A DNA stretch of 64,000 nucleotides, from NCBI RefSeq assembly GCF_003634585.1, contig NZ_RBLG01000003.1, forward strand, positions 186,001-250,000, read 5' to 3'. A program made the translations under genes and the position numbers. Below the pieces are notes generated by a model. The model was not told the DNA's origin, ran no database searches, and saw only the letters and a program-made list of their open reading frames with translations. Source of the stretch: Gillisia mitskevichiae (lineage in GTDB: Bacteria > Bacteroidota > Bacteroidia > Flavobacteriales > Flavobacteriaceae). Shown one piece after another: positions 23,404 to 57,325 of this stretch (position 1 is its first letter; each line of letters opens with the position of its first letter).

Positions 23404-25038
23404 TTAAGGTTGAACAACAAGAACATCTAAACCTGTCATTATACTAGGATTGTTAGAAATCTTAACATCATCCAGCGCAAAATCATTTCCACTTGGAGCT
23501 GTATTATCATTAAGTATTTGCAATTTTAATTGTCCTGAAGCATCAGATCTTATCCATAATCCAACCTTCTGAAAGTTATCAGTAGTAGTAATAACATCTG
23601 CTAACAAGTTGCTATCCACACTTACTCTCAATTCTGCTGGACTCCTTGTTACCACACTTCTCGTTTCGAATGTTACATAATAATCTGAATTTGGACAGAT
23701 ATCTTGACATGTAAAAGAATAGTAAACTGTCTTATCATTTTCTACAGATCCATTGATAACCATCATATTGTCTCCATTATCAAAGTTAGCGAAATCAGGA
23801 TGTACATTACTTGGGTTATTTATAAACGTATATGTTCCTTCTGGAACTAATGCATTTGATGTGTTTGGCGCAACATAGCTATATTGTGTACCTGTAGTAA
23901 TTCCAGATCCAGTTAAGAATGCACTATCATTAAAATTATTTTCATACCAAGCTAAAGGGGATAATAAACATGGCGTAGAATCTTCTTCACAGTAAGGACC
24001 TTCTCTAAAGTGCCAGTATTTCTTAAGATCAGAATCTGGATCATCAAATGCTCCATTTTTAATCATAGTATCAGTAAAATTACCACGTCTAATTAGATCT
24101 TCTTCATTTCCATTTTCATCTACTGTCCAAATCTCTGCGTAATAAGAATCTGTTCCTGTTCTATCTGGCAAAGGAATACATAATGGATCTGCGCTTTTTA
24201 CAATTCCATTTTCATAAACGGCATTGTTTGTTTCTTCTACTAAAGCTTTAGATCTATCTAATACAATATCGAAGAAAGCATCTGGAGATTGTGCTTCTGT
24301 ATCATGTTCCCAAACAATTATTTTGAAATTAGATGGTGTGTGTCTTCCATTTATATCACATTCATTTCCAAAGAAACATACATAAGTTAATGGAACCATT
24401 TGAAAATCGAAGAATAAATAACCATATTCTCTTGCGAAAGCTTGATCATAACATAGTACTTCTACTTCATCGTAATGCTTAGTTCCTTCTTCTAACTCAA
24501 TAACGTGAGGAAGTGGATTATTTACAAAATTTGCAAAGTTTGCAGGTCCGTACGTATCATCTGAATTAGGTGCTATCCACATTATATTCATTCCTGCATC
24601 TAAAACTGCAAAATAACGAAGTGTATAATCTCCTGGATCCAATTCTAAAAATGTTTCCTCATAGGTTAGATAGTTATCTAATCCATCTGCATTAGAGTCT
24701 GATGTGTTATCTATCACTCTTATTAAAACATCATTAGCCTCTCCTACTCCATCGGAAACATATCCTCCGCCAGGTTTCTCTATCATTGCCAAAATAAATG
24801 CTGGGGTAGTTTCTGCATTGGGACACATTGGTACATCACTATCTTCATTTACTGGAGTTTTCATTGTTTGCATTCTCGATTGGTCAAATTTCTTGAGAGC
24901 CATATCGAAACTTAAAGTTACCTTTTCTACTGCTTGAGGTCCTTCCGGATCTTGAGACGCATTGTCTTCCTTACTACAGGAGGTAAAGCACATTGCTAAA
25001 ACAGCAATGATCATAACTGAAATTCTTGCATTTTTCAT
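23404..25038 (-). CDS. Lipoprotein A1: family N-terminal module plus jelly-roll-like C-terminus
   Basis: This 544-residue lipoprotein has its Cys at 21 in MCFTSCSKEDN; CSKED fits the flavobacterial surface-export signature. Residues about 35-320 form the family module, here in its A form: ELDPGDYTLRYFAVLDAG, MWIAPNSDDTYGP, AREYGYLFFDFQMVPLTYVC, FFGNECDINGRHTPSNFKI and PLCIPLPDRTG. The C-terminal part of about 200 residues has strand-rich sequence ending in SGNDFALDDVKISN, a pattern common in carbohydrate-binding-like jelly rolls. The function is unknown; display on the cell surface and ligand binding are inferences. It is last in the run of lipoprotein genes, 77 bp after A2, with three 21-bp repeats in its leader. 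Confidence 0.65.
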   Translation of the reverse strand: MKNARISVMIIAVLAMCFTSCSKEDNASQDPEGPQAVEKVTLSFDMALKKFDQSRMQTMKTPVNEDSDVPMCPNAETTPAFILAMIEKPGGGYVSDGVGEANDVLIRVIDNTSDSNADGLDNYLTYEETFLELDPGDYTLRYFAVLDAGMNIMWIAPNSDDTYGPANFANFVNNPLPHVIELEEGTKHYDEVEVLCYDQAFAREYGYLFFDFQMVPLTYVCFFGNECDINGRHTPSNFKIIVWEHDTEAQSPDAFFDIVLDRSKALVEETNNAVYENGIVKSADPLCIPLPDRTGTDSYYAEIWTVDENGNEEDLIRRGNFTDTMIKNGAFDDPDSDLKKYWHFREGPYCEEDSTPCLLSPLAWYENNFNDSAFLTGSGITTGTQYSYVAPNTSNALVPEGTYTFINNPSNVHPDFANFDNGDNMMVINGSVENDKTVYYSFTCQDICPNSDYYVTFETRSVVTRSPAELRVSVDSNLLADVITTTDNFQKVGLWIRSDASGQLKLQILNDNTAPSGNDFALDDVKISNNPSIMTGLDVLVVQP

Positions 25039-25039
25039 A

Positions 25040-25102
25040 ATTAAATGGTTTTTGTTAAAGATTAAATTGGTTTAGTAAAAAATTAAATTGGTTAATTAGT
25101 TA
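25040..25102 (-). repeat. Three degenerate 21-bp tandem repeats in the A1 leader
   Basis: ATTAAATGGTT, ATTAAATTGGTT and ATTAAATTGGTT start at 25040, 25061 and 25082, a 21-bp period (two helical turns) immediately before the A1 start codon on the minus strand. They could be protein-binding iterons or a leader RNA element. Confidence 0.5.
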
Positions 25103-25115
25103 GCATTATTAATTG

Positions 25116-27182
25116 TTATATGGGGCAAAATTCACCCCCATTAAGACTACTTCCGGATATCACTATAAATTTTCCAAATATGCTTCCAATGCCTATTGGT
25201 TGGGAGCAACTTGTGTGAATATCTGTATGTTTATTATGATTTATATAGACTTCAATATTGGTCCACATGGTGATTTTTCCATTTCTATTATATGATCCCA
25301 TAACATTGAAAGTTTGGTTTTTATTTACATATTCTTTAAAAATCACCGTTCTATCTTTGGATTGGATTATTTTAATATTTGCATCACTTCCAGTATATTT
25401 TAGCGTTAACTCCACAACCTTTCCATCACATTCATCACAATCATCTGGTGGTGTTTCCACAGGGCACAATATCCCACCAAGCAGACTTGCCCCAGACAAT
25501 ATTTTAAAATCTCCTATCACTAAGCCCGGACCAATTGGGGAAGAACAACTTGTATGAAACTTTCCATAATATGAGCTGTTTACATAAATTTTAATATTAT
25601 CACCCATTGTAGCACTACCTTCACTCTGTGAAATGTTAATAATTTCGCCATGATCTACAGTGTCTTGAAATAATATGGAATTATCATTATCTTGTTTAAT
25701 TTTCACTGCTGTGTTATCTGGTCCTTTAAAGCGTATACTTAAATCTGTTACTTTACCATCACAGCTTTGGCATTCTGGGTTATCTCCAGGAGGCACAGGG
25801 CATAATTCCCCTCCAACTACGCTTTCCCCAACAATTATTTTAAAATCACCAATTAACAGCCCAGGCCCAATAGATTCAGCACAACTTGTATTTAATTTTC
25901 TGTATAAAATTTGATTTGTAAAAATTTTAATTTCATCTCCTAAGGAGGGAATACTACCGTGCTTATTTAATTCTATTATGTCATTGGGATTTACCGTCCC
26001 ATCGAAGATGCTTATCCCTCCAGTGGTGATAGTTACGTCTGTGATTTCTGTTCCTAGGTATTGGAGATCTAAATTTGCAACCCCACCTTCACAGGGCTTA
26101 CATTCCTGGCCATCACAATCTGCGGTAGTGAGATCTGTAAGAAGGGAAAAATTGTCTTCTTTTCCACAGCAATCATCTCTAAAATGATATAAACTAAATT
26201 TCTCTTCATTAAAAAGATTTTCTAAAATTGTAGTGTCTGTAAAAGAACCCTCTCTAATAAGTGTCTGAGATTGATCATCTTCAATAATATACACTTGCCC
26301 AAAAAATTTGTCTTCACCAGGTCCATCTGGTAAGGGAACACATATTAGATCACCGTAAAACCGTTCTACTTCATCATCATCTATTATAGAACTAATTGTA
26401 TTTTTTTTATCTACTAATAAATTGCTGGCATCATAATTACCGTTTTCATCAAACTTCCATATTGCAAGTCTAAAGTGAGCAGGACTATGTCTACCTACTT
26501 CATCACAGACATTTCCAAAAGAACAGATATAAATAAAATTAGGATTTGTAAAATCGAAGAATAAATATCCAAATGCGATAGCAAGTTGTTTATCGTAACA
26601 TAGAACCTCCACGGGAGCATAATGTTTTTCACCGCTCAGGATATCAACTTTTATTGGTAAAGGTTTGTTTACATAATTTTGAAATGAAATAGGCCCATAA
26701 TTATCATTTTTTCTCGGTGCTAAATAAATTATTTCGGCATTGGCATCATTCCCATCCAATACTGCAAAATATTCTATGCTGTATGAACCAGCATCGAGTT
26801 CTAAATCTTCAGACTCTTTGGTAAACCAAGCATCTAGGATATTGTCCCCATTGGAATCACTACCATTCGGATTGACTTCGATTTCTATAAAACTATTTAC
26901 TCCATCCTTGCCCGCAACCCATGAGTTATCACTTAGATTTCTAACGGCTACCCGTACATATTTGGGAATTAGATCTGAACATTGTGGAATTTCCTCAAAC
27001 TCGCCAAAAACTGTTTTAAAATTTTTGTCATCAAAATTTTCTAATAAACTTCCAAAAGACAACACACCCTTGACTTCACCGGTGTTTTCTGGGGCCTTGG
27101 TACCCGATTCATCTTCTTTACTACAAGAAGAAACTAAAAAAAGCAGAAGAATTCCTAAAAATAAGGCACGAGTTTTTACCAT
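25116..27182 (-). CDS. Lipoprotein A2: family N-terminal module plus three Cys-rich repeats
   Basis: This 688-residue lipoprotein has Cys20 in FLVSSCSKEDES. Residues about 30-355 hold the A-form family module (ELDAGSYSIEYFAVLDGND, IYLAPRKNDNYGP, IAFGYLFFDFTNPNFIYIC, SFGNVCDEVGRHSPAHFRL, LICVPLPDGPG). Then come three repeats of 104-111 residues (about 364-473, 474-584, 585-688), each beginning C(D/E)G-V--L and carrying TSC--(P/S)IG-G---G-F-(I/V)--G-S--GG--CP. The repeats look like an extracellular Cys-stabilised beta module; I do not assign a named family. The protein ends exactly with the last repeat. G-run motifs lie 103-169 bp upstream of the start. Confidence 0.65.
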   Translation of the reverse strand: MVKTRALFLGILLLFLVSSCSKEDESGTKAPENTGEVKGVLSFGSLLENFDDKNFKTVFGEFEEIPQCSDLIPKYVRVAVRNLSDNSWVAGKDGVNSFIEIEVNPNGSDSNGDNILDAWFTKESEDLELDAGSYSIEYFAVLDGNDANAEIIYLAPRKNDNYGPISFQNYVNKPLPIKVDILSGEKHYAPVEVLCYDKQLAIAFGYLFFDFTNPNFIYICSFGNVCDEVGRHSPAHFRLAIWKFDENGNYDASNLLVDKKNTISSIIDDDEVERFYGDLICVPLPDGPGEDKFFGQVYIIEDDQSQTLIREGSFTDTTILENLFNEEKFSLYHFRDDCCGKEDNFSLLTDLTTADCDGQECKPCEGGVANLDLQYLGTEITDVTITTGGISIFDGTVNPNDIIELNKHGSIPSLGDEIKIFTNQILYRKLNTSCAESIGPGLLIGDFKIIVGESVVGGELCPVPPGDNPECQSCDGKVTDLSIRFKGPDNTAVKIKQDNDNSILFQDTVDHGEIINISQSEGSATMGDNIKIYVNSSYYGKFHTSCSSPIGPGLVIGDFKILSGASLLGGILCPVETPPDDCDECDGKVVELTLKYTGSDANIKIIQSKDRTVIFKEYVNKNQTFNVMGSYNRNGKITMWTNIEVYINHNKHTDIHTSCSQPIGIGSIFGKFIVISGSSLNGGEFCPI
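25119..26093 (-). repeat. Coding threefold repeat in lipoprotein A2
   Basis: Units at about 26093-25764, 25763-25431 and 25430-25119 encode the three Cys-rich modules. They are clearly homologous in protein sequence but diverged, so the amplification is not recent. The first unit has CAESIGPGLL where the others have CSSPIGPGLV and CSQPIGIGSI. Confidence 0.75.
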
Positions 27183-27814
27183 GACTAAAAAGTTTAAATT
27201 TTATTAATGTCATTTTTAATATGCATATCCAAACACTGGATTATACAAATTGAAATTTAGTGGGTAGGACTAAAAAAATTATATTGTGGGGAAGTATTGA
27301 TTTTCACTAAGGCCAAATTATAATCTTAAATATTTTAACAGTATGGGGGAAAACCCGTAGTTTTTAAAATGTAAATTTTAAACTATTTCTAACAAATAAG
27401 TTAATTATATTTTCAAAAAGGAATACCGTAAGCCTAATATTAGTAGGAGGTGATGAATATTTATATTTTTAACAGAATACTTAATTCTTATAAATACTCT
27501 TAAAATTCACCCAATTTTTTAAAAGTTCAAAAAGCAGATGATGGATTATATGGAAATCTAAACTAACTTTTTAGAATCTACTAAAATTTGAAAAAAGGTA
27601 GATTAAAGTGTTTAATTAAATCAAAATTTTAATAATTAAAGTTTCAATTTAAAATTGGATGAGAATAAAATAAGTAGAATTATAAAGTAAAAAATGAGAT
27701 TATAAAATGCAGAATTCCGCAGAACTATATGAAGTGAATATCCAAAAGATTAATTTTTAATGGGAAAGGTGTAGATTCAAAAAAAAAGGGGGGACTAATA
27801 GGGTTTGTATCTTA
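27183..27814. other. 632-bp gene-free stretch upstream of A2
   Basis: No open frame with coding character was seen on either strand. It is very AT-rich with isolated G-runs: TGTGGGGAA at 27285, ATGGGGGAA at 27343, and GGGGGG at about 27788 near the A3 stop codon. No -7 box of TAnnTTTG type is visible before A2, and no decayed copy of the lipoprotein module was recognised. Confidence 0.6.
27285..27351 (-). promoter_or_regulatory. Candidate G-run operator pair upstream of A2
   Basis: ATGGGGGAA (27343-27351) and TGTGGGGAA (27285-27293), read TTCCCCCAT and TTCCCCACA in the direction of A2 transcription, lie 103-169 bp before the start. Exactly the same two 9-mers, in the same order, lie upstream of the LuxR gene. 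Confidence 0.45.
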
Positions 27815-28468
27815 TTATTTAGAACATAAATAATAAGGATCTTGATCTTCTAAACTAAGAAAAACGAACCCAAATTCATAGGCATGTTCTATTTTAAAAC
27901 AGAGAGCTTCTATTGGGATATAATGTTCTATTCCTTCCCTTATAGTGAATGTTATAGGCAAGGAATTGGTTACCAAATTATAATATTGCATTGCATTCGA
28001 CTCCATTCCTTTTTTGGGTGACATTAATACGATTCTAGAATCTCTACCTTTGCTATTTGTTACTGCTAAATATTCCAAAGTATAATTCCCAACTGGTAAT
28101 AATAGCTTATTGGCTTTAGAAGTATTCCAGGTATCCAAAATCTCATCATTATCTGTATCCAAACCTAAAGGATCTATTTCTAACTCATGGAATCCTGTCG
28201 TACTGTTTCCATAAAAACAATTCCCTTGACCATCTTTAATGGCCATACGAACATATTTGAGATCCAAAATAGAACACATAGTATTCTTAAACTTAAAATT
28301 GGCAGACCTCATATTACGTGAAGTTTCAATTGGAGTAACCCCAACTGAAAGAATTCCCATACCAATAGGATCATTAAAAGTGACATTGGAATCATCTGTA
28401 CTGCTACATCCCCCAAATAAGAATATTACAAATAAAAGTAGTGAAAGCATTGGACTAAACTTTTTCAT
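27815..28468 (-). CDS. Lipoprotein A3: short, truncated family member
   Basis: This 217-residue lipoprotein has Cys21 in FLFGGCSSTDDS, the only family member without the CSK-acidic signature. It follows the A-form module (KYVRMAIKDGQGNCFYGNST, LPVGNYTLEYLAVTNSKG, VLMSPKKGMESNAMQYYNLV, LPITFTIREGIEHYIPIEAL, AYEFGFVFLSLEDQDPYYLC) and stops right after the YLC that in A1 and A2 leads into FFGN/SFGN-CD. It thus has only the first half of the module and no C-terminal domain. The stop is a clean TAA, and I found no continuation of the module downstream. It may be a degraded paralogue or a functional minimal form. Confidence 0.6.
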   Translation of the reverse strand: MKKFSPMLSLLLFVIFLFGGCSSTDDSNVTFNDPIGMGILSVGVTPIETSRNMRSANFKFKNTMCSILDLKYVRMAIKDGQGNCFYGNSTTGFHELEIDPLGLDTDNDEILDTWNTSKANKLLLPVGNYTLEYLAVTNSKGRDSRIVLMSPKKGMESNAMQYYNLVTNSLPITFTIREGIEHYIPIEALCFKIEHAYEFGFVFLSLEDQDPYYLCSK

Positions 28469-29432
28469 AATTAAATTATTTAATTAAACATTCTAAGAAT
28501 TATATTCTTAGTGATTTCAAAAAGTTTTCTAAAATTAGCTAGGAGGAAGGGCAGAATCTTTTAAGCGTACAATGGGTGTAATGGGTACATAAAATATGAG
28601 GGAAGACTTAATAATTGAAATTCAAATTTAAACTAAAATTAATATTTAGGAAAGGGGAAAAAACCCTAAATTTTCAACTATAAATTATATTTGAATAAGA
28701 AATTTTGCTTCGAAAATATTTTAATATTACAAAGCAAAATTTAAGTACGCTTATGTTATACTTTTTTATTAATTTCTTTTTTTAAGACATTAAAAAATCC
28801 GTCACAAAAAGCATCGGGTGTTTTATAATTTAAATAATCAATTACAATTAATTGTTCAATTTCTATCATTCAGATCTCATATTTTGGGTTTGATCTGTTT
28901 GAGAATAATATGCTGTAGGTATATTACTTCTACCTATTTACCTAGAGTTTTGGAAGTATTCTTATAAACCGTAAATTCATTTTAATGAGTTCACGGTCAT
29001 AGAAATTTTTAATAAATAGCTCGTCTAATTAATGTATGTTATTCACATTACTCTGTCTATAGGAGTTTTCCTTCAAGTAAAATGTACCTATTATACTTTA
29101 ATTAATTGCGGAAGTAGAACCATTTCAATGTACTATATTCAATTCTGTAAAATTAATTTTCGATAACGATAAAAACTTATAATCATTTGATTTTAGTATA
29201 ATTACATAGTAATTAAATAGCTGATGAATTAATAAAAAACACTTAAATATTATCAATTACAATACTGGGGAGAAACATTAATATTTAGATGTAATTTTAA
29301 TTATTAAAAAATATAATAGAAGAGGCTCAGTAGCGAAAAATTATAAACAATTGGGGAAGATTTCCACAAGTAAAAGAATATTGTAGAAAAAAAAAGCCTG
29401 AGTAGAAAATTAATTACTCAGGCTTATTGGAT
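28469..29432. other. 964-bp gene-free stretch between the astacin and A3 genes
   Basis: No coding frame was seen on either strand. Structures present: CTAAGAAT-tat-ATTCTTAG (28493-28511) in the A3 leader, a long stem of 11 bp with a 21-nt loop (28700-28742, arms AAATTTTGCTT and AAGCAAAATTT), G-runs at 29264-29271 and 29351-29358, and the astacin terminator. No transposon ends or RNA gene were recognised. Confidence 0.6.
29394..29425 (-). terminator. Terminator of the astacin gene
   Basis: Arms AAGCCTGAGTA and TACTCAGGCTT with a 10-nt loop, followed on the minus strand by nine T, lie 8 bp past the stop codon. Confidence 0.85.
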
Positions 29433-30476
29433 TTATCTAGCGTAATACCAACGATCATTAATCAGTTCAACGACTTTCCAGCCATAAGACCTTGAATAAT
29501 AATACCAAAGATCCTTATGTCTTAGCACTCTAACTCCACTAATTGTATAATATTCTCCATTAGTGTAAGTAGGATTAACTGGTTCTGTAGTTCCTCCTGA
29601 AGGATACATATTATTAATACCTGTTTTATCTCCGGATGAAAGCGCATTTCTTTGAACACTAAATGTGCTACCATCTAATTTTACAATTGTAGGTTGTCCA
29701 TTACTAGAGAAAGAATAAGAGCTATACAACATGATTGATCCAAAATCTAAATTAGAAGTGAACTCATCTCCATCTGAACCACTTTCTTCATAAGTCTTAA
29801 AATTATGTTCTCTTCCACTTTGAATGTTTGAGTAGTTAATTCTAATGTGTTTCTCACGATCTACTCTACTCTGTTCATGCCACAATCCTACTGCATGCCC
29901 TATTTCATGAATAGTATTTCCTGTAGAACACCCAGTAGCTAGAGTGATATTTTGTCTACCACCTGTCATTCCTACATAAGAAGAACATCCAGAACCTGGT
30001 GTGAAATAAATATAGTTGGATTGACTTGTTCTCTGAACAAATTTAAGTGAAGTATTCGCTTCCCAATGTTTAATAGCATCTGTTGCTCTATTTTTATCTG
30101 GAAGACTACTATCTATGGAGTAGTACACTGTATTATTTGGCCATCTTGCCGATGTTCTCCCTACACTTTTCTGAGCAGGTATCTCCTCTCCTTTTTCAAA
30201 TACTAATTTAACATCTTTAGATGTAAGCATATCATTAGAAAAAACGATATCTCCCTCATAAATGTATTCACCATCAATTTCTTCTACGGTGATCTTTTTA
30301 CCGGCAAAATAAACATCTGATAAGAGTCCAAAATCGTTCGGGTAGGCTACTTCAACATTTGCTGCTAATTCTGTTTTCTCTACTAGTTGCTGTTCTTTTT
30401 CTGGGGTTATTTCATCTTTACTACAAGAAAGAATAGCTAGAGCTGGTAGTAAATACAATAAATTTGATTTCCTCAT
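29433..30476 (-). CDS. Astacin-family (M12A) zinc metalloprotease lipoprotein
   Basis: This 347-residue lipoprotein has Cys18 in ALAILSCSKDE; CSKDE fits the surface-export signature of its neighbours. A propeptide-like region (about 25-105) precedes the catalytic domain (about 107-292) with the astacin zinc motif HEIGHAVGLWHE (H190, E191, H194, H200) and the Met-turn in GSIMLYSSYSF. The C-terminal 40 residues are Tyr/Trp-rich (DLWYYYSRSYGWK). It would cut proteins at the cell surface and resembles flavastacin-type enzymes. It lies inside the lipoprotein cluster between B1 and A3, but has its own terminator and spacing of over 500 bp to B1. Confidence 0.88.
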   Translation of the reverse strand: MRKSNLLYLLPALAILSCSKDEITPEKEQQLVEKTELAANVEVAYPNDFGLLSDVYFAGKKITVEEIDGEYIYEGDIVFSNDMLTSKDVKLVFEKGEEIPAQKSVGRTSARWPNNTVYYSIDSSLPDKNRATDAIKHWEANTSLKFVQRTSQSNYIYFTPGSGCSSYVGMTGGRQNITLATGCSTGNTIHEIGHAVGLWHEQSRVDREKHIRINYSNIQSGREHNFKTYEESGSDGDEFTSNLDFGSIMLYSSYSFSSNGQPTIVKLDGSTFSVQRNALSSGDKTGINNMYPSGGTTEPVNPTYTNGEYYTISGVRVLRHKDLWYYYSRSYGWKVVELINDRWYYAR

Positions 30477-31023
30477 AAATTGGGGTTTAAAAAAATTAAA
30501 TTGAACAAATACATCTTTAGTATTATATTATCTGTTCTGGTTATTAATAAAAAATGTTACGACTTGGATTGTTTCAAAGTTCATTCCAAAAAAAGTAATC
30601 ATGAGATCACAATTATTTAAAAACCAACCACTTAACAATAAATTATTTCAATTATTCACAATAATTATGAATAATTTTTTAAAATTTTTATACGTTTTTA
30701 TTAAAAAAAGAATAATTCAATTATTAATTAAGATTGAATCATCTTTGGCAGCTCATTTTGGGGGGAGATATGAGTGCATATTTAAATCAAGTCGCTAAAG
30801 TACACAAATATCCGATTAACGACGTTAAAATTTAATGTTTCTTTAACTTTAACATTTTCTATAATAGAAAAGCTGCCCGAAAAATCGGACAGCCTCTTCT
30901 ATTAACACCTCTAATTATTATTAAAATAACTACTGGTGATTAATAAAACTAACCTCACATACCTATCATCCCCCCGGTTGACAAATAGCAAGCGTTAGTT
31001 TTTTATTTATATCATTCGTATTA
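30477..31023. other. 547-bp gene-free stretch between B1 and the astacin gene
   Basis: Apart from a B1 terminator candidate, I see AT-rich sequence with one G-run (TTTTGGGGGG at 30756-30765). A 65-codon open frame at 30601-30798 has low-complexity Lys/Ile/Phe/Asn composition and is judged non-coding. A long-range stem (AACTAAC near 30947 with GTTAGTT near 30994) could also form. Confidence 0.5.
30872..30893 (-). terminator. Possible B1 terminator
   Basis: On the minus strand GCTGTCCGA and TCGGGCAGC pair (one G-T) around a 4-nt loop and are followed by TTTT. It lies 131 bp past the B1 stop codon, further than usual. Confidence 0.55.
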
Positions 31024-32655
31024 TTATGGACCAACAATATCTTCACATATAACCGCCTCTATGGTAATAAAAACAGGATATGTATATTCATAATCGGAGA
31101 ATGTTAATGGAATAGCCAATTGATTACCAGATGGTGCTACTATTTCATTGTCACATAAAGTGTGAAAACATTCTACAATTCTAGCATCAGATTCATCACT
31201 AGGCCAAATTTTAACTCTGTATCCTTTTATTCTATCTATTACATTTGGAGTATCTAAAGTTACTTGGACATTAGTACCATCTAAAACCACATTAGCAATT
31301 CCAAATAATACATCAGGGTCTAACTGACCTTTATCTCCTCTTAATTCCAAATCGGTTTCACCTGTAATAGTATAAACAATACTAGAGTCTGCTAAATCTA
31401 CCGATACATCGTAGCAATTTCCACCAGATGTACTAGTAAGCTCACAATCTGTTGGAGTACATCCTACAATAGGATCCGTCCAACACCCATCTCCATCAGG
31501 ATCAACTTGCCCTGTTAACACAGTTGTAATTGGACAGTCATCCACATCATCATTTTTCCCATCATCATCGGTATCTGGATCATTAGGGTTTGTGCCTAAC
31601 TCTTCTTCCTCTTCATTAGTTAAATTATCCCCATCTGGATCACATTGTGGTCCTGTTGGATCTGTTTCACAATTATCTCCGCCATTTCCATTTCCATTAT
31701 CATCTCCACAATTAATTCTAACGTGCTCATATCGTGGCGTATCTAAAAGTTGTGCATCTATATCTGCCTGAGTTATTGTGTACTCTACAAAATCTGAAGC
31801 ACCTGCAATATATGCTCCTGCGTCAAGTACTGTAACTCTTACATAGTACATTCCATCTTCTCCTAATGGAGGTAAAGGGAAACATAAAACTGTAGCTGCA
31901 AAAGCATTGCCTTCACCAGAAACAGAATTCATCGCACCATCTACTATCACATTTGTTCCATCATAAGCATCTCCCCATACATCTACCTGGAAGTTTGCTG
32001 GATACTCTCTACCTGTCTCATCATAACAGTAGTTAACAAAAACGCAATAGTTGTTAGTTATTCTAATTAAGTTAATATCAAAAAAGATATAACCAAAGGC
32101 ATCTTCCATACGCGGAACATAACATAACACGTCTACTTCTACATAAGGCTTAGTTCCTGCACCTAACATTATTTCTTGTGGCAAAGGATCCATAACACTA
32201 CTTGCGTAAGCACCACCTTCTCGAGGAGCTACCCACAGTACTTCATCATCTGCACTATATACTATAAAGTATTGTAATTGATAAGTACCTGCTGGTAATC
32301 CCAAAACATCTGAGTATTCCGTTTCCCAACTTCCATTATTATCTTTAAGATTAACTTTGATAAAATCACTTGCATCAGCACCGTCTGCTTCTGGGTTCAT
32401 ACCGCCAACCCATTCATCATCACTATTGGTTAATGCAACCAATACATAAGAAGGAGCAGCATCACTACATACCACGGGATCATCAGATAAATGATCTTTG
32501 CTTTGCTTTGCAAAATCATTTAATAAGGTTCCAAATTGTAATTGAAATGTATCCTGACCATCAGCACCTGCAACATCTGTTTCTTCCTTACTACAGGAAG
32601 TAAAGAGTAGTGCAAATACCGCCAGAAAGGCTATTGAATGTTTAAAAATTTTCAT
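31024..32655 (-). CDS. Lipoprotein B1: family module plus TSP3-like repeats and unknown C-terminus
   Basis: This 543-residue lipoprotein has Cys21 in LLFTSCSKEETD. Residues about 33-316 are the B-form module: DTFQLQFGTLLNDF, PSYVLVALTNSDDEWVGG, LGLPAGTYQLQYFIVY, LWVAPREGGAYASSV, AFGYIFFDINLI, YCVFVNYCYDETGREYPANF and VLCFPLPPLGEDG. Next is a calcium-binding-like acidic stretch (CDPDGDNLTNEEEEELGT, DPDTDDDGKNDDVDDCP, VDPDGDGCW) of thrombospondin type 3 style, then about 140 residues with four cysteines that I cannot assign. The module DNA is about 98 percent identical to B3 without gaps, but the two tails are unrelated. Surface location is inferred from the signal; function unknown. Confidence 0.7.
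   Translation of the reverse strand: MKIFKHSIAFLAVFALLFTSCSKEETDVAGADGQDTFQLQFGTLLNDFAKQSKDHLSDDPVVCSDAAPSYVLVALTNSDDEWVGGMNPEADGADASDFIKVNLKDNNGSWETEYSDVLGLPAGTYQLQYFIVYSADDEVLWVAPREGGAYASSVMDPLPQEIMLGAGTKPYVEVDVLCYVPRMEDAFGYIFFDINLIRITNNYCVFVNYCYDETGREYPANFQVDVWGDAYDGTNVIVDGAMNSVSGEGNAFAATVLCFPLPPLGEDGMYYVRVTVLDAGAYIAGASDFVEYTITQADIDAQLLDTPRYEHVRINCGDDNGNGNGGDNCETDPTGPQCDPDGDNLTNEEEEELGTNPNDPDTDDDGKNDDVDDCPITTVLTGQVDPDGDGCWTDPIVGCTPTDCELTSTSGGNCYDVSVDLADSSIVYTITGETDLELRGDKGQLDPDVLFGIANVVLDGTNVQVTLDTPNVIDRIKGYRVKIWPSDESDARIVECFHTLCDNEIVAPSGNQLAIPLTFSDYEYTYPVFITIEAVICEDIVGP
31706..32562 (-). repeat. 857-bp near-identical block, copy in B1
   Basis: This block aligns to 35109-35965 in B3 at a constant offset of 3403 with no gaps and about 19-20 mismatches by eye (about 98 percent). 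It covers the family module from just after the signal peptide to its final INC, and similarity drops sharply at both ends. Confidence 0.85.
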
Positions 32656-32715
32656 GATTGAATAATTTAGATTAATTGTATTAAGAATACTTAATACCTG
32701 AATTTTAATTAAGTA

Positions 32716-32754
32716 AGAGCGATTAAAAATTTATACGATTTTTCTAATCGCTCT
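32716..32754 (-). terminator. Hairpin between B2 and B1
   Basis: Arms AGAGCGATTA and TAATCGCTCT enclose an AT-rich loop, 49 bp past the B2 stop codon and 61 bp before the B1 start. The T-run is weak, so partial read-through into B1 is possible. Confidence 0.6.
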
Positions 32755-32802
32755 ACACTTAAAAATTATAATAACTTGAAATGAACATTTTAATCTTTAG
32801 GT

Positions 32803-34224
32803 TTAAAGGGAAGGACAAAAGCCTTCTTGGACTCTAACTTTTAAAAAGAAACCACCAGATGCAAGAACTTGTGGTGAGATTACATCACCCTCTAATCTTT
32901 CAGTGAAGTTATCATTGTGAACACAGTCATCATTACATCTTGTATCGTTACAAATATCTGCACTAGACCCATTTGGCAATCGAGCATCTATTTCAAAAGC
33001 TGAAATTAGATTATTACCTAAATTGGAGAAATGAACTCTAAGGTCTCCGCCTCCACTAAAATCAAGATTCACATCAGCAATTGGATTCGTTGTGCCTTCT
33101 ACATAAAGTTTGAATGTATCTGAGATATTTGCATTTGTTATATGAACAAATCCAGCTGCGCCCATATCACCTTCTTCAGATAGGAATCCATATACCCCAC
33201 CGTCACAATAGAAATTACATGAGGATACATTCGCTGTAGAAGGAGTACAATAAGGTTCTTCTTGATTAGGATTACAATTAATTTTTAAGTGCTCGTAACG
33301 AGGAGTTTCAGTTAACTGAGCATCAATATCAGATTGATTTATTTGGAATTGCACCACATCTGAAGCGTCAGATGTATATGGTAACAATGCATCATCCATT
33401 ACTGTAACTCTAACAAAATAAGTATCGTCTCCTTGTAATGGTGGCAATGGGAAACATAACACAGAGGCTGCTGGATAATCACCAGATTGAGAGATGGAGT
33501 TCATTTCTCCATTAATCACTATCTCGCTTCCATCATATCCATCTGCCCATACCTCAACCATAAATTTGGCAGGATATTCTCTTCCAGTCTCATCATCACA
33601 ATAATTCACGAAGATGCAATAGTTGTTAGTTATTCTTATTAAATTAAGGTCGAAGAAAATATAACCATAAGCCTCTTCCATACGAGGAACATAACATAAA
33701 ACATCTACCTCTACATAAGGTTTAGTTCCTGCTCCTAACATAATTTCTTGTGGCAAAGGATCCACTACGCTTCCTGCATATGCACCGCCTTCTCTAGGGG
33801 CTACCCAAAGTACCTCATCATCGGCACTATACACAATAAAATATTGTAATTGATAAGTCCCTGCTGGTAAACCTAAAACATCTGAGTATTCTGTTTCCCA
33901 GCTGCCATTATTATTTTTAAGGTTTACTCTAATAAAATCACTTGCATCAGCACCATCTGCTTCTGGGTTCATACCCCCTACCCACTCATCGTCACTATTG
34001 GTTAATGCAACTAATACATAGGAAGGTGCAGCATCACTACACTCTACTGGATCATCGGATAAATGATCCTTGCTTTGATCAAAATCATTTAATAAGGTTC
34101 CAAATTGTAATTGAAAAGTATCCTGCCCATCAAGGCCGGCAATATCAGATTCTTCCTTGCTACACGATGTAAATATTAGTGCAAGGATCGCAATAAAACT
34201 TAAATAGTAATTAAATTTTTTCAT
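32803..34224 (-). CDS. Lipoprotein B2: family module plus Cys-rich C-terminus without TSP3 repeats
   Basis: The 473-residue lipoprotein starts at the ATG at 34224 (MKKFNYYLSFIAILALIFTS, Cys21, CSKEESD); the frame is open upstream but without a good start. The B-form module spans about 33-317 (LGLPAGTYQLQYFIVY, AYGYIFFDLNLI, YCIFVNYCDDETGREYPAKF, FPLPPLQGDD). After INC come about 155 residues with many cysteines (SSCNFYCDGG, ICNDTRCNDDCVHNDN) and a strand-rich part; no TSP3 repeats are present. The second half of the module diverges more from B1 and B3 than the first. Its leader and signal peptide are close to B3. Confidence 0.65.
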   Translation of the reverse strand: MKKFNYYLSFIAILALIFTSCSKEESDIAGLDGQDTFQLQFGTLLNDFDQSKDHLSDDPVECSDAAPSYVLVALTNSDDEWVGGMNPEADGADASDFIRVNLKNNNGSWETEYSDVLGLPAGTYQLQYFIVYSADDEVLWVAPREGGAYAGSVVDPLPQEIMLGAGTKPYVEVDVLCYVPRMEEAYGYIFFDLNLIRITNNYCIFVNYCDDETGREYPAKFMVEVWADGYDGSEIVINGEMNSISQSGDYPAASVLCFPLPPLQGDDTYFVRVTVMDDALLPYTSDASDVVQFQINQSDIDAQLTETPRYEHLKINCNPNQEEPYCTPSTANVSSCNFYCDGGVYGFLSEEGDMGAAGFVHITNANISDTFKLYVEGTTNPIADVNLDFSGGGDLRVHFSNLGNNLISAFEIDARLPNGSSADICNDTRCNDDCVHNDNFTERLEGDVISPQVLASGGFFLKVRVQEGFCPSL

Positions 34225-34270
34225 GATTAAATAGTTTAGATTAATAATATATTTAGAATGGCTAATAAAA
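34225..34270 (-). repeat. Conserved leader shared by B2 and B3
   Basis: The 46 bp before the B2 start match those before the B3 start (36059-36104) at all but two positions, while B1, which shares most of B3's coding DNA, has a different leader. It is a trace of duplication or a conserved 5' UTR element. Confidence 0.7.
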
Positions 34271-34301
34271 GAATATGGATATAGTTTGAATATTAAAATA
34301 A

Positions 34302-34332
34302 CCATCCATTGAATTCATCATTCAATGGATGG
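34302..34332 (-). terminator. Terminator of B3
   Basis: Perfect arms CCATCCATTGAAT and ATTCAATGGATGG enclose a 5-nt loop 13 bp past the B3 stop codon. The following minus-strand sequence is T-rich but interrupted. Confidence 0.7.
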
Positions 34333-34345
34333 CATTTATTAAATG

Positions 34346-36058
34346 TTAGTCATCATCATCAGTTCCGTTATCATCACCATTACAAGTATTACCTGCATGT
34401 ACAATAACCCAGAAGCTACTATCTGAACTGGTTCTGGTAAGTGTGAATTCTAACTCACTATCTCCCACCTCATCATTTCGGTTGTATTTACCTGGACTTT
34501 TTGCAGTATCCCCAGGACTATCTTCACTTAAATAAACATGAAGGTCTGAAATACTAAAGCCTGAGTTTAAACTAATTGAAAAGTGAACCTGGTCTCCATT
34601 TGTAGTAATGGTTACTTCTCCTGCATTTGTACCTTTACTTAGATCATTTTGACCAGCTCCTCTCCATAAATCGAAGGTTTGACTGTTATTATCATCATTA
34701 TCTGCAGTATTGTAGTTATGAGCCCAGCCCCATCTGTTGGATTTTGAAATCTCATTGATTCTAGTATTTCCAAACATAAAGGCAGTTCCACATCCGGTAT
34801 CTACATCTTCTTCAGGACACCCGTTATTTGTTGTACTATAAACATCTGGACACGCATCTACACAGTTTTTAAAACCGTCTCCATCTGTATCTCTATCGTC
34901 ACAATCATCACAGACATCACCTTTACCATCTCCATCTTCATCAGCTTGATCTAGATTGGCTACATTAGGACAATTGTCACATCCATCTGGGATACCATCA
35001 CCATCTGCATCTTCCTTATCATCATAACCTGGACATAAATCATCATTATCTGGTACGCAATCTCCATCTGAATCTTCTGGAGTTATTGGACAATCATCTG
35101 GAGGAGTTCCACAATTAATTCTTAAGTGCTCATATCGTGGCGTATCTAAAAGTTGTGCATCTATATCTGCCTGCGTTATTGTATACTCTACAAAATCTGA
35201 AGCACCTGCAATATATGCTCCTGCGTCAAGTACTGTAACTCTTACATAGTACATTCCATCTTCTCCTAATGGAGGTAAAGGGAAACATAAAACTGTAGCT
35301 GCGAAAGCATTGCCTTCACCAGAAACAGAATTCATCGCACCATCTACTATTACATTTGTTCCATCATAAGCATCTCCCCATACATCTACCTGGAAGTTTG
35401 CTGGATACTCTCTACCTGTCTCATCATAACAGTAGTTAACAAAAACGCAATAGTTATTAGTTATTCTTATTAAATTAATATCGAAAAAGATATAACCAAA
35501 GGCATCTTCCATACGTGGAACATAACATAACACGTCTACTTCTACATAAGGCTTAGTTCCTGCACCTAACATTATTTCTTGTGGCAAAGGATCCATAACA
35601 CTACTTGAATAAGCACCTCCTTCTCGAGGAGCTACCCACAGTACTTCATCATCTGCACTATATACTATAAAGTATTGTAATTGATAAGTACCTGCTGGTA
35701 ATCCTAAAACATCTGAGTATTCCGTTTCCCAACTTCCATTATTATCTTTAAGATTAACTTTGATAAAATCACTTGTATCAGCACCATCTGCTTCTGGGTT
35801 CATACCGCCAACCCATTCATCATCACTATTGGTTAATGCAACCAATACATAAGAAGGAGCAGCATCACTACATACCACGGGGTCATCAGATAAATGATCT
35901 TTGCTTTGCTTTGCAAAATCATTTAATAAGGTTCCAAATTGTAATTGAAAGGTATCCTGACCATCGGGCCCTTTAACATCGGTTTCTTCCTTGCTACAGG
36001 AGGTAACGCATAGTGCGAGAATCGCAATAAAACTTAAGTAGTAATTAATTTTTTTCAT
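34346..36058 (-). CDS. Lipoprotein B3: family module, TSP3-like repeats and acidic-tailed C-terminal domain
   Basis: This 570-residue lipoprotein has Cys21 in LCVTSCSKEETD. The B-form module (about 33-316) is almost identical to that of B1. Four TSP3-like repeats follow: DSDGDCVPDNDDLCPG, DADGDGIPDGCDNCPN, DEDGDGKGDVCDDCDD and DTDGDGFKNCVDACPD, which in the known family bind calcium. The last 130 residues (CGTAFMFGNTRINEIS, RWGWAHNY, RGAGQNDLSKGTNAGE) resemble a domain common in Bacteroidetes surface proteins and end in a poly-acidic tail DDNGTDDDD. It is the first lipoprotein after the LuxR gene. Its leader and signal peptide match B2, its module B1: a mosaic. Confidence 0.7.
   Translation of the reverse strand: MKKINYYLSFIAILALCVTSCSKEETDVKGPDGQDTFQLQFGTLLNDFAKQSKDHLSDDPVVCSDAAPSYVLVALTNSDDEWVGGMNPEADGADTSDFIKVNLKDNNGSWETEYSDVLGLPAGTYQLQYFIVYSADDEVLWVAPREGGAYSSSVMDPLPQEIMLGAGTKPYVEVDVLCYVPRMEDAFGYIFFDINLIRITNNYCVFVNYCYDETGREYPANFQVDVWGDAYDGTNVIVDGAMNSVSGEGNAFAATVLCFPLPPLGEDGMYYVRVTVLDAGAYIAGASDFVEYTITQADIDAQLLDTPRYEHLRINCGTPPDDCPITPEDSDGDCVPDNDDLCPGYDDKEDADGDGIPDGCDNCPNVANLDQADEDGDGKGDVCDDCDDRDTDGDGFKNCVDACPDVYSTTNNGCPEEDVDTGCGTAFMFGNTRINEISKSNRWGWAHNYNTADNDDNNSQTFDLWRGAGQNDLSKGTNAGEVTITTNGDQVHFSISLNSGFSISDLHVYLSEDSPGDTAKSPGKYNRNDEVGDSELEFTLTRTSSDSSFWVIVHAGNTCNGDDNGTDDDD
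35109..35965 (-). repeat. 857-bp near-identical block, copy in B3
   Basis: This is the partner of 31706-32562. Most of the roughly 19-20 differences are at synonymous third positions. Between the two copies lies B2, whose corresponding DNA is visibly more diverged, so simple tandem duplication does not explain the pattern. Confidence 0.85.
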
Positions 36059-36191
36059 AATTAAATAGTTTAGATTAATAATATATTTAGAATGGTTAAT
36101 AAAATTATTACGTAAGTACCTGTAGGGAGTACAGTTATGTTATTTTCGGGATGTTCCTTTTGGGAATATTCTAATTAAACAGGAAGTTGTA

Positions 36192-36267
36192 GATGGGGGT
36201 GACTTCTTGCTTTAAAGTAAAGATATATTGATATCTAGGAGTAGGCCTATGGGGGAATTCCCCCATA
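36192..36267 (-). promoter_or_regulatory. Candidate operator region between the LuxR gene and B3, with G-run palindrome
   Basis: The perfect 20-bp palindrome TATGGGGG-AATT-CCCCCATA (36248-36267) contains ATGGGGGAA in both orientations. A second run, GATGGGGGTG, lies at 36192-36201. They are 190-210 and 134-143 bp before the B3 start and just past the LuxR stop codon. On the minus strand no T-run follows, so terminator function is less likely than protein binding. Confidence 0.5.
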
Positions 36268-36282
36268 ATTTTTAATTAATCC

Positions 36283-37329
36283 TTATGCCCTATTATGTTG
36301 TAAATCGATTAAATTATGGCTTACAGCGTATATGATGCTTTCCAATATAGTATCAGAATTAGTGCGCTTAACGATGTTTGCCCTATGCTTCTCTATAGTC
36401 TTAGGAGAAATATATAAGGTGTCAGAAATTTCTTTCGTTTTATAACCTTTACACAATAATTGAATAATTTCTTTTTCTCTTTTTGTAAAGCAGAATTCTG
36501 TCAAATTGGAGTTTTCTTCGAAGCAGTTTTCAACATTTTCAGAGGAGCTTCCTACTTTTTCATTAATCACAGAATCTTCATCAAAGAAGTGAATCATCAT
36601 AATGAATTGGCCTTGAAGCAATTTATCTAGTTTGCTAAAACTAATCTTAGCATTCCTAGTTTTATTGTTTTTCAGTTTTAAGGAGGTTTTAGTTACAGCT
36701 TTCATATGCTTGCCTCTAGCAAAATTCCTTAAACTCGCTCTCACCTTTGTTTTATTCTTACAGTCTACAAAATCTGTAAGTTTTATATTTTCAACATCTA
36801 AATTGTCTAGTTTAAAGGACTCCTTAAATGAATCGTTCATTGCAATTATAGTATCCTGTTGTAGTAGGATTACAGGATTTACCAATATATTAAATAGTCC
36901 CATAAAAGAGTCCTTCCAATAATTCGTAATCGTTAATTTTGAATGTATTTGCTTTAAGATCCTATTATATAGATGTGATTTTGTACAGGTATTATAGATT
37001 ACCTCATTTACCTCATTCTTATATTGCAGCTCAACAATACTCTTAACATTTTCATCTGCATACATTACTAGATAGCACTTATTTAGGAAATGAGTAGATT
37101 TAAAATTTGAAATATTTTTAAGACTTTTTGTGCTTAGTGAGGTTTGATCTACAATAATAATATCTGGAAGTAAATCCAGAGCTAAGTTGTAACCAGTATG
37201 AATTGAATTTGCCGAATTTATTTCGCAATCTACACTCAAATTCTCAGCTATATTTGAGCTAAAATCCTTATGATCGCTAATGACCAATAATTGCTTCTTA
37301 TCTGTTCTCATCCCATTAATTTTAAACAT
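36283..37329 (-). CDS. LuxR-type transcriptional regulator with receiver-like and PAS-like domains
   Basis: The 348-residue protein starts MFKINGMRTDKKQLLVISDH. A receiver-like domain (about 10-125) keeps an aspartate at the phosphorylation position (PDIIIVDQTS, about D61) but looks degenerate. A PAS-like segment (about 140-240) follows, then a clear LuxR/FixJ helix-turn-helix (TKREKEIIQLLCKGYKTKEI, ISPKTIEKHRANIVKRTNS; about 283-340). It is the first gene of the minus-strand cluster and reads towards B3. Its upstream region carries the same G-run pair as A2, so auto-regulation and control of the lipoproteins are inferred. No sensor kinase is nearby. Confidence 0.8.
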   Translation of the reverse strand: MFKINGMRTDKKQLLVISDHKDFSSNIAENLSVDCEINSANSIHTGYNLALDLLPDIIIVDQTSLSTKSLKNISNFKSTHFLNKCYLVMYADENVKSIVELQYKNEVNEVIYNTCTKSHLYNRILKQIHSKLTITNYWKDSFMGLFNILVNPVILLQQDTIIAMNDSFKESFKLDNLDVENIKLTDFVDCKNKTKVRASLRNFARGKHMKAVTKTSLKLKNNKTRNAKISFSKLDKLLQGQFIMMIHFFDEDSVINEKVGSSSENVENCFEENSNLTEFCFTKREKEIIQLLCKGYKTKEISDTLYISPKTIEKHRANIVKRTNSDTILESIIYAVSHNLIDLQHNRA

Positions 37330-55381: not shown

Positions 55382-57325
55382 TTAATATCCAGTAGTCGAA
55401 GAAGCATTATGCAATTTTGCATTAGACTGTCTAAATTTCGTTCTTGTCACCTGTTTTAACTCACTTATTGGAGCGGTATCTATTTTTGCTACTCCACCCA
55501 AAACGAAAGTGTTGGTAGAATCATAAAACAATGGAAAATCACCTTCTCCAGGTTCAATTACTGAAGCACAAGCAATTGTTAACCCATTTACACCTTCCAT
55601 AATAGGATGAACTCTGTTAGAGCTAGCAGGTAATTCAGGATAATTACCATTTTGAATACAATCCAATGCGCCGCCTGAATTAAATAGAATAGCCCCCATA
55701 TTTATTAGAAATTGATTTTCAATAGGTATTCCAGAGCCATAAAACCCATCATGTTCTCCCATAAAAATTATTCTTCCGCCTTCAGAAGAAAATTGTTTGA
55801 GTGTATTAATCTCCGCTACAGTATATTGAACATTAGGCATTACAAGCATTATTATTTTTACATCTGAAGGAATACTAGTTAATGAACCACTTGTGGAACT
55901 TATATCCGAGATGGTAAAACCTTGGTTTTCAACTAGACTTCGCATAGTGGACCATTCGCCAGTACAAAACACACAACTTGAGGCTCTTCCGAAATCGAAC
56001 ATAAATGTTGTTCCGCTGTTTCTTATTCCTGTTGTTGTAAAATTGATTAAATTTTTAACGAACTGCACATTGTCTGGATCTTCCATAGCCCTAGCATCAA
56101 ATATATTTGCGTCATTCAGTACAACCATATCTCTTCCTGGAACTTGTATACTTTCACAACCAACTTCATCTACTTCTACCCCAGGATCTGTATCTGGACA
56201 TTCATCAATATCGTTAGGAACGCCATCGCCATCGTCATCTACTCCCGTTTCGCAAACATCTCCCACTCCATTTTCATCTTCATCTTCTTGGTCTGGGTTA
56301 GCAATATTAGGACAGTTATCTTCATTATCAGGAATTCCATCCTGATCTGAATCTACTGGTACGCTTCCATCATCGTCACAATTAATTCTAATATGCTCGT
56401 ATCTTGGTGTTGCACCTAACTGAGCATCAATCATGGCCTGGGTAATTTCAAATTCATAAATATCTAAAGCACTTGCTGTATAAGCTCCAGCGCTAAGTAC
56501 AGTTACACGCACATAGTACATTTCACCATCCTCTAATGGAGGCAATGGAACACATAATACAGTAGCGGCAAAACTATTACCTTCACCAGATACAGAATTC
56601 ATCTCTCCTCCTAATATAACTTCTGATCCATCAAAAGCATCACCCCAAATATCTACTTGGAAGTTGGCTGGATACTCTCTACCTGTTTGGTCATCACAGT
56701 AATTTACAAATATGCAATAGTTGTTTTCAATAGCTATAGCATTTATGTCGAAGAAAATATATCCATATGCTTCTTCCTCACGTTCTATGAAACAAAGTAC
56801 GTCCACCTCTATATATGGCTTAGTTCCTGCTTCTAATATAATTTCTTGAGGTAAAGGATCTCCAACACTACTTGCATAAGTCCCACCTTCCCGTGGTGCA
56901 ACCCAAAGTACTTGATCATCGTCACTATAAACAATGAAGTATTGTAGTTGATAGGTCCCTGCAGGCAGTCCTAACATTTCTGAATATTTAGTCTCCCAAC
57001 TTCCACCGTTGTTAACAATATCTACTTTAATGAAATCGGCCGTAGTTGCTCCTTCCCCGGTTGGATCCATATCTGCAACCCAGTTTCCTTCTGCATCTGT
57101 TAGCGCAACAAGAACATAAGAAGGCTCTGCATCACGGCATTCTAGAGGATCTTCCGATATTTGTTGTCTAGTTTGCGATTCAAAATCATTTAACAAAGTT
57201 CCAAACTGTAACTGAAAAGTATCTTGAACTTCTGGTCCAGATACATCCGCTTCATCCTTGCTACAGGATGTAAATAGCAAAAAGAGAATTACTACAAAAC
57301 TCCAACAGTAATTTACATTTTTCAT
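55382..57325 (-). CDS. Lipoprotein B4: family module, TSP3-like repeats and amidotransferase-fold-like C-terminus
   Basis: The 647-residue lipoprotein starts at the ATG at 57325 (MKNVNYCWSFVVILFLLFTS, Cys21, CSKDEAD). The B-form module spans about 33-316 (LGLPAGTYQLQYFIVY, YGYIFFDINAIAIENNYCIF, VNYCDDQTGREYPANF). TSP3-like repeats follow (DSDQDGIPDNEDNCPN, DEDENGVGDVCE, DDDGDGVPNDIDECPD). The last 260 residues contain IIMLVMPNVQYTVAEI, LKQFSSEGGRIIFMGEHDGF and VHPIMEGVNGL, resembling the ThuA/DUF4350-type class I amidotransferase fold. It lies 18 kb from the main cluster, between the thioesterase and menF. Confidence 0.7.
   Translation of the reverse strand: MKNVNYCWSFVVILFLLFTSCSKDEADVSGPEVQDTFQLQFGTLLNDFESQTRQQISEDPLECRDAEPSYVLVALTDAEGNWVADMDPTGEGATTADFIKVDIVNNGGSWETKYSEMLGLPAGTYQLQYFIVYSDDDQVLWVAPREGGTYASSVGDPLPQEIILEAGTKPYIEVDVLCFIEREEEAYGYIFFDINAIAIENNYCIFVNYCDDQTGREYPANFQVDIWGDAFDGSEVILGGEMNSVSGEGNSFAATVLCVPLPPLEDGEMYYVRVTVLSAGAYTASALDIYEFEITQAMIDAQLGATPRYEHIRINCDDDGSVPVDSDQDGIPDNEDNCPNIANPDQEDEDENGVGDVCETGVDDDGDGVPNDIDECPDTDPGVEVDEVGCESIQVPGRDMVVLNDANIFDARAMEDPDNVQFVKNLINFTTTGIRNSGTTFMFDFGRASSCVFCTGEWSTMRSLVENQGFTISDISSTSGSLTSIPSDVKIIMLVMPNVQYTVAEINTLKQFSSEGGRIIFMGEHDGFYGSGIPIENQFLINMGAILFNSGGALDCIQNGNYPELPASSNRVHPIMEGVNGLTIACASVIEPGEGDFPLFYDSTNTFVLGGVAKIDTAPISELKQVTRTKFRQSNAKLHNASSTTGY

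What the first reader, a model, noticed from the sequence alone, without database searches (positions are those of the whole stretch)
23404..37329. A seven-member lipoprotein family with one constant N-terminal module and changeable C-termini, arrayed behind a LuxR regulator
Seen: A1, A2, A3, B1, B2, B3 here and B4 at 55382-57325 share a module of about 300 residues (A3 only its first part) with landmarks such as GTYQLQYFIVY, (Y/F)GY(I/L)FFD, and C-F-N-CD--GR--P. The six long members end in unrelated parts: jelly-roll-like, threefold Cys repeat, TSP3 repeats with different caps, Cys-rich, amidotransferase-fold-like. I know no named family for the module. Inference: a surface-display scaffold on which binding domains are swapped.
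Basis: partly seen in the sequence, partly recalled or inferred. Interest (0 to 1): 0.8.

Follow-up and report, generated by a model that had tools for sequence, protein, structure and literature searches.

The report
Surface lipoproteins with swapped end domains
Some marine flavobacteria carry, at one chromosomal spot, a row of probable surface lipoproteins that share one base domain but end in different, exchangeable domains, which offers a natural system for studying how bacteria re-equip their surface.

Summary
Seven window genes, plus an eighth elsewhere in the genome, share a ~300-residue N-terminal module; A3 has only its first half. A and B forms are homologous (E 7e-35 and 4e-29). No window member reached a Pfam or NCBIfam cut-off in the module, and PDB sequences gave nothing convincing. 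The first half looks like a distant relative of DUF4458/BT_0210. In 17 fetched stretches LuxR, the array and an astacin metalloprotease lie together beside uvrA; all 17 include a B3-type (E) cap, 13 an HIHG (H) cap. Module and cap histories differ: the AU test rejects one-clade modules for cap types E, G and H. Against G006 (UvrA 97%) the E caps are 78% identical but modules only 31-36%. B1 and B3 are 94-100% identical in DNA across most of the module, then unrelated. A1- and A2-type genes do not show this discordance. 64 of 83 full-length members carry the surface-export motif C-X-K-(D/E)2. Best reading: a surface pedestal with recombination-exchanged caps. Function is untested; 'binding domains' is not shown.

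The parts
36283..37329 (-). LuxR-type regulator, first gene of the array: C-terminal GerE helix-turn-helix, weak PAS-like middle, faintly receiver-like N-terminus
   Evidence: Pfam GerE E 2.5e-13, PAS_9 below cut-off; PleD-type match to residues 9-131 far below cut-off; orthologue beside uvrA in 17 stretches that also hold array and astacin
34346..36058 (-). B3, 570 aa: module, TSP3 stretch, E cap (NRWGW type), first after LuxR
   Evidence: structure model
32803..34224 (-). B2, 473 aa: module and Cys-rich cap (type X8), second after LuxR
   Evidence: no Pfam family above cut-off for the cap
31024..32655 (-). B1, 543 aa: module and S cap, third after LuxR
   Evidence: module 98% identical to that of B3
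31696..32655 (-). shared N-terminal module in B1 (signal peptide, lipobox, about 300 residues, six conserved Cys)
29433..30476 (-). astacin (M12A) metalloprotease with a lipobox, co-located with the array
   Evidence: Pfam Astacin E 6.7e-49; relatives in the arrays of other genomes
27815..28468 (-). A3, 217 aa: first half of the module only, conserved stand-alone gene
25116..27182 (-). A2, 688 aa: module and three DUF7467 stretches (D cap)
23404..25038 (-). A1, 544 aa: module and J cap ('jelly roll' untested)
55382..57325 (-). B4, 647 aa: module, TSP3 stretch, amidotransferase/GIFT-like G cap; outside the array
34301..34333 (-). terminator-like hairpin between B3 and B2
   Evidence: 12 terminator-like sites in the region, mean 5.6 in shuffles

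Best explanation
The genes encode outer-surface lipoproteins built as pedestal, stalk and cap. Seen in the sequence: a lipid anchor with an export motif, a constant module with six conserved cysteines, often an Asp-rich TSP3 stretch, and a cap from one of many unrelated types. Seen by comparison: a LuxR regulator, two to four such genes in partly conserved order and an astacin protease form one locus, and for the main cap types modules and caps have different histories. Inferred: the module holds the cap away from the membrane; its likeness within a lineage is kept by gene conversion, perhaps also by contact with a shared partner or with each other; the caps bind or modify something outside the cell; LuxR switches the set on; the astacin trims or sheds the displayed proteins.
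For: Surface: C-X-K-(D/E)2 in 64 of 83 full-length members against 6 of 47 non-family lipoprotein-like ORFs picked by a pattern of mine, Fisher p 5e-13; it is the optimal export motif in Capnocytophaga canimorsus (PMC5080379, passages). Pedestal: mostly beta model in two parts split by a poorly predicted stretch, pLDDT 73.5, pTM 0.50; Foldseek hits to BT_0210, BACOVA_04077, BF2867 and BACOVA_02677, E 5e-8 to 8e-4. Caps: DUF7467, TSP3, vanadium chloroperoxidase N-domain at cut-off, DUF305, TTHB210-like, PPC. Locus: 17 stretches with LuxR, array and astacin; all hold an E cap, 13 an H cap. Exchange: a different-cap module of the same genome is closer than the same-cap module of the other genome in 212 of 243 pairs for at least one genome, 178 for both, 166 if within-genome means are used; AU test rejects one clade for cap E (p 1.5e-45), G (5e-12) and H (2e-4) on 55 of 85 modules; in G007 the first gene has module 74% (144 residues), cap 34%, and the gene next to astacin module 81%, cap 21%; B1/B3 DNA 94-100% over nt 100-950, then 22-56%.
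Against: No expression, localisation or binding data. J caps (0 of 6 pairs by the both-genomes count), D caps (0 of 3) and several rare types show no discordance. On the module tree cap labels need fewer changes (28) than genome labels (54); in one clade (G001, G003, G008, G011, G014, G022) modules and caps often travel together. Foldseek TM-scores are 0.22-0.29 with rmsd above 10 A for the Bacteroides and ancillary-pilin hits, and the nine hits with E up to 0.001 also include a streptococcal ancillary pilin, the pilus adhesin SpaC and an erythropoietin-receptor complex. No LuxR site was found. The H cap was not found outside module genes in 120 family genomes (2 with hits), so a free pool of H caps is not shown. 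A terminator-like hairpin leaves the operon question open.
Confidence: 0.6

Rival explanations
1. The array encodes parts of a fimbria-like polymer: the module is a fimbrillin-type subunit or anchor, the astacin plays the part of the gingipain that matures type V fimbrial proteins, and the capped members are tip or accessory adhesins.
For: Foldseek hits include 3pay and the anchor Mfa2, 5nfi (E 2e-3, only); Mfa1, Mfa2 and Mfa3 share two beta-sandwich domains, and the shaft and tip proteins lose their first strand to a protease; 3pay is described there as a putative anchor (PMC5789003, passages); an astacin gene is in the locus.
Against: No separate shaft subunit was recognised; capped members could not easily donate a free C-terminal strand; no fimbrillin family match beyond signal-peptide level; TM-scores below 0.3.
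Confidence: 0.15
2. The caps are an ordinary set of extracellular enzymes and ligand binders; the shared module is just a common N-terminal domain spread by gene duplication.
For: An enzyme-type cap; recent duplication could explain the near-identical B1 and B3 modules; module and cap are inherited together for J and D caps.
Against: Among ten other genes scanned in the window, near the array and around B4, none is a SusC/SusD or carbohydrate-degrading enzyme (the rest of the window was not scanned); similar E caps on very different modules in close relatives do not follow from duplication alone.
Confidence: 0.15
3. The whole array, or blocks of it, moves sideways as a unit, and the discordance reflects horizontal replacement rather than cap swapping or gene conversion.
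For: G006 is close to the window genome at the flank (UvrA 97%), but all three of its array modules are of another type (31-36%) and group with G015 and Christiangramia.
Against: The G006 E cap is 78% like the window's and 84% like that of G001, whose module is only 35% alike, so an exchange inside the gene is still needed; one B1 module query found nothing in plasmid or phage records and a profile nothing in viral contigs.
Confidence: 0.1

Closest known systems
DUF4458 (PF14660) and the leucine-rich repeat protein BT_0210 (PDB 4ecn)
   Same: First half of the module: first Foldseek hit for both models; a distant module relative in G668 (L090) reaches 21.4 bits against a cut-off of 22.4, and its first part has 4ecn as best PDB hit by sequence, though only at E 0.13; LRR proteins with half-module matches occur in G060 and G240.
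   Different: Window members stay far below the cut-off (E 0.05-0.2); the second, Cys-rich half and the caps are not part of DUF4458. That 4ecn itself carries DUF4458 was not tested.
Type V (FimA/Mfa1-type) fimbrial proteins, especially anchors such as Mfa2 and BovFim2B (3pay)
   Same: Lipid anchor, mostly beta two-part module, protease gene nearby; weak fold match.
   Different: No shaft subunit recognised, no fimbrillin family match, long unrelated C-terminal caps.
Polymorphic toxin systems (constant N-terminus, exchangeable C-terminus)
   Same: Architecture and recombination pattern (recalled; PMC3482391 seen in a search listing with the start of its abstract).
   Different: No toxin family was found in the scanned members and no immunity gene was recognised.
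DUF7467 (PF24269)
   Same: Three stretches form the cap of A2 (E 6.8e-28).
   Different: It is a cap, not the module; no paper in the library names it.

Membership tests
DUF4458 (PF14660) | score above the curated cut-off of 22.4 bits | tested here: not met
   window members 12-14 bits where they match at all; best distant relative 21.4 bits
DUF4458 / BT_0210 N-terminal domain | same fold as the solved relative 4ecn | tested here: inconclusive
   first Foldseek hit, E 4.9e-8, probability 1.00, but TM-score 0.26 and rmsd 18 A on a medium-confidence model
Type V fimbrial proteins | fimbrillin-type family match in Pfam or NCBIfam | tested here: not met
   only matches at signal-peptide level, far below cut-off
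Type V fimbrial proteins | two beta-sandwich domains | tested here: inconclusive
   predicted mostly beta in two parts; Foldseek hits 3pay, 4h40, 5cag and 5nfi
Type V fimbrial proteins | polymerises after proteolytic removal of the first strand | not testable with these tools
   needs protein chemistry and microscopy
Surface-exposed Bacteroidota lipoproteins | lipobox and export motif C-X-K-(D/E)2 | tested here: met
   64 of 83 full-length members strictly, 12 with another acidic pair, 7 with neither; half-module members 3 of 11 strictly
Surface-exposed Bacteroidota lipoproteins | demonstrated exposure on the cell surface | not testable with these tools
   needs labelling or protease shaving
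Polymorphic toxin systems | toxin-type C-terminal domain with an adjacent immunity gene | tested here: not met
   no toxin family above cut-off in the Pfam scans of the seven window members and ten further proteins; in the window, the ORFs of 100 aa or more next to array members are other members, astacin, LuxR, GGT or an ORF overlapping A2 on the other strand; shorter ORFs were not examined

The most novel reading that the evidence does not exclude
The module acts as a lineage-specific compatibility tag: operon-mates must carry matching pedestals because they assemble together or dock on one partner, so a lineage replaces its pedestals as a set (window against G006) while the caps, which do the outward work, are kept or traded across tags. 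LuxR, matched pedestals and astacin would then be an undescribed, re-equippable surface system of marine flavobacteria.
Probability: 0.22. Interest if true: 0.72.

Novelty: new variant of a known kind. Interest (0 to 1): 0.55.

Why it matters
Constant-variable proteins are best known as toxins or antigens (recalled). Here the same design carries a range of other domains at a fixed locus with a regulator and a protease, with molecular traces of exchange between close species. That makes a testable system for how environmental bacteria alter their surface equipment, and a handle on unnamed domains (the module, the E and H caps) and on DUF4458 and DUF7467.

Tried and rejected
Motif search: ATTAACCA stands upstream of 43 of 93 members against 1.4 expected, but the longer TTAACCATTCTAAA is not enriched in the genome (8 hits, reversed control 9), so I read it as shared leader sequence, not a LuxR operator. 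The second exact hit, on contig 4, lies near genes that I did not annotate further.

DUF4458 survey: no match in 247 genomes and none in the control genomes, so it tells nothing. Mobile origin: no match in plasmid, phage or viral collections. Relic of a second astacin in three window gaps: none found with the proteins of L032. H cap outside module genes: not seen in 120 genomes. A plain claim 'modules group by genome' was dropped because cap labels need fewer changes on the module tree (28 against 54). The VWA-like label of cap W is my recall of a DxSxS motif; families do not support it. The CHRD-like label of cap H is likewise recalled and unsupported. The astacin matches NCBIfam's LegP model only below its cut-off (229 against 300), so I name it astacin only. 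Structure prediction of the full B3 gave pTM 0.36.

Rows dropped: 108 ORFs were collected; G025, G026 and G033 and modules not spanning profile positions 40-270 were left out of the identity tables and trees (85 modules kept); the AU tests used 55 of these 85; the export-motif count used the 94 rows with a start.

Literature (open-licence PMC library only): no listed paper was about this array, judged by title and start of abstract; passages were read of PMC5789003 and PMC5080379 only.

Full report
What is there. The window (G000, contig 3, 186001-250000) holds seven minus-strand lipoprotein genes with a common N-terminal module. B1 as query finds the other six and an eighth on contig 2. Aligned modules keep six cysteines plus the lipobox cysteine invariant in 21 rows. 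A and B forms are therefore one family. A3 holds only the first half, but so do stand-alone genes of 210-220 aa next to the same neighbours in G001, G002, G005, G007, G009 and G013; broken or fragmentary copies stand in G004, G006 and G015.

Is the module known? No window member reaches a Pfam or NCBIfam cut-off in the module, and a module profile finds nothing convincing in the PDB by sequence (two hits, best E 0.27). Several weak lines point to DUF4458 for the first half: Foldseek ranks BT_0210 (4ecn) first for both models (E 7e-8 and 5e-8); a distant relative in G668 scores 21.4 bits on DUF4458 (cut-off 22.4) and its first part has 4ecn as best PDB sequence hit (E 0.13). Proteins with part-module matches fused to leucine-rich repeats (G060, G240), a receptor L domain (G026) or LamG (G025) occur. 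The module model (pLDDT 73.5, pTM 0.50) also hits Bacteroides putative adhesins, with low TM-scores; other hits up to E 0.001 are Gram-positive pilus proteins and an erythropoietin-receptor complex.

Distribution. The first profile hits 19 of 40 genomes, own genome included, and 14 of 15 same-genus genomes. The wider profile hits 8 of 299 family genomes (6 of 236 genera, two of these only by LRR-fused parts) and 3 of 395 phylum genomes, own genome included. These broad searches scored at most seven and five candidates per genome, so copies and weak relatives may be missed. Named hits are Gillisia, Christiangramia and Salegentibacter.

The locus. The usual order is uvrA (divergent), LuxR, two to four module genes, one or two astacins, then sometimes the half gene and A-type genes, then sometimes GGT, then ACP phosphodiesterase. 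Stretches holding LuxR, array and astacin together number 17: the window, Christiangramia portivictoriae, C. sabulilitoris, C. sediminis, G001, G003, G005, G006, G008, G009, G011, G014, G022, G061, G270, G286 and G295. All 17 have an E cap; 13 have an H cap (not the window, G003, G009, G270). E comes first in 11, H first in 6. In the C. portivictoriae and G006 stretches the ACP phosphodiesterase side is cut off. The stretches were fetched because they held the module, so the count says nothing about LuxR or astacin elsewhere. Other stretches with array genes end before LuxR or before astacin (G007, G012, G015, Cww623; in Salegentibacter lacus 0.9 kb upstream of the first array gene). In G002 LuxR and the half gene remain and no full-length member was found. 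B4-type and further members lie outside the array.

Caps. Pfam names several: DUF7467 and TSP3, vanadium chloroperoxidase N-domain (29.3 bits, equal to the cut-off), DUF305, TTHB210-like and PPC; LruC/DUF4842 is suggested below cut-off in G668. The E cap of B3 has no Pfam family, and a relative of it sits on a 321-aa lipoprotein without the module elsewhere in the genome (38% identity). The H cap was found only within module genes in a sample of 120 genomes. Cap types are single-linkage BLAST clusters of the last 120 residues; members of type E can be as little as 23% identical.

Separate histories. Of 257 same-cap pairs between genomes, cap identity exceeds module identity by more than 10 points in 31. 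In 243 pairs with data, a different-cap module of the same genome is closer than the same-cap module of the other genome in 212 for at least one of the two genomes, in 178 for both; the within-genome mean is higher in 166. By type and by the count for both: E 73 of 90, H 60 of 88, S 18 of 20, V 18 of 20, G 8 of 10, but J 0 of 6 and D 0 of 3. The AU test rejects a single clade of modules for E, G and H caps (the groups are cap types, tested after the identity table had been seen). The sharpest case is the window against G006: UvrA 97%, E cap 78%, all nine array module pairs 31-36%. Within operons, modules are 47-98% identical. Against G007, the first gene keeps 74% of the module (144 residues) but 34% of the cap, and the gene next to astacin 81% and 21%; these G007 positions are read from contig ends. 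B1 and B3 agree at 94-100% of bases from nt 100 to 950 and drop at the module end; 19 of the 36 differing codons lie in the first 36. B2 shares the first 700 nt with B3 at 72-92%, then falls to 50-70%. Against this, cap labels need fewer changes on the module tree than genome labels (28 against 54), and in one clade modules and caps often stay together.

Surface. The strict motif C-X-K-(D/E)2 stands in 64 of 83 full-length members, 3 of 11 half members, and 6 of 47 control ORFs, which seem to include astacins (Fisher p 5e-13). In Capnocytophaga canimorsus this motif sends lipoproteins to the surface (PMC5080379, passages).

Mechanism. Seen: architecture, locus, discordance. Inferred: pedestal role, gene conversion as the homogenising force, cap function, LuxR control, astacin trimming. 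A terminator-like hairpin between B3 and B2 may mean graded or separate transcription.

Verdict. A real, clade-restricted, polymorphic lipoprotein system; half of its module resembles a known DUF; its design resembles constant-variable systems known elsewhere. Interest 0.55.

Noticed in passing
window 29433-30476: Astacin-type protease with a lipobox inside the array; several relatives have two copies.
   Followed up: partly
L042 (G002): LuxR and the half gene are kept although no full-length array member was found, so LuxR may have other targets.
   Followed up: no
L035:13186-14267 (G009): LuxR reads as two overlapping ORFs although the array is present; broken gene or sequencing error.
   Followed up: no
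L093:922-1887: Relative of the E cap on a lipoprotein without the module elsewhere in the window's genome.
   Followed up: partly
L057 and L061 (G011): Module members with long related caps; L057 matches the vanadium chloroperoxidase N-domain at Pfam's cut-off, L061 has no family match.
   Followed up: no
L038 (G014): uvrA, LOG and PGM read as several ORFs, which suggests frameshift errors in this assembly.
   Followed up: no
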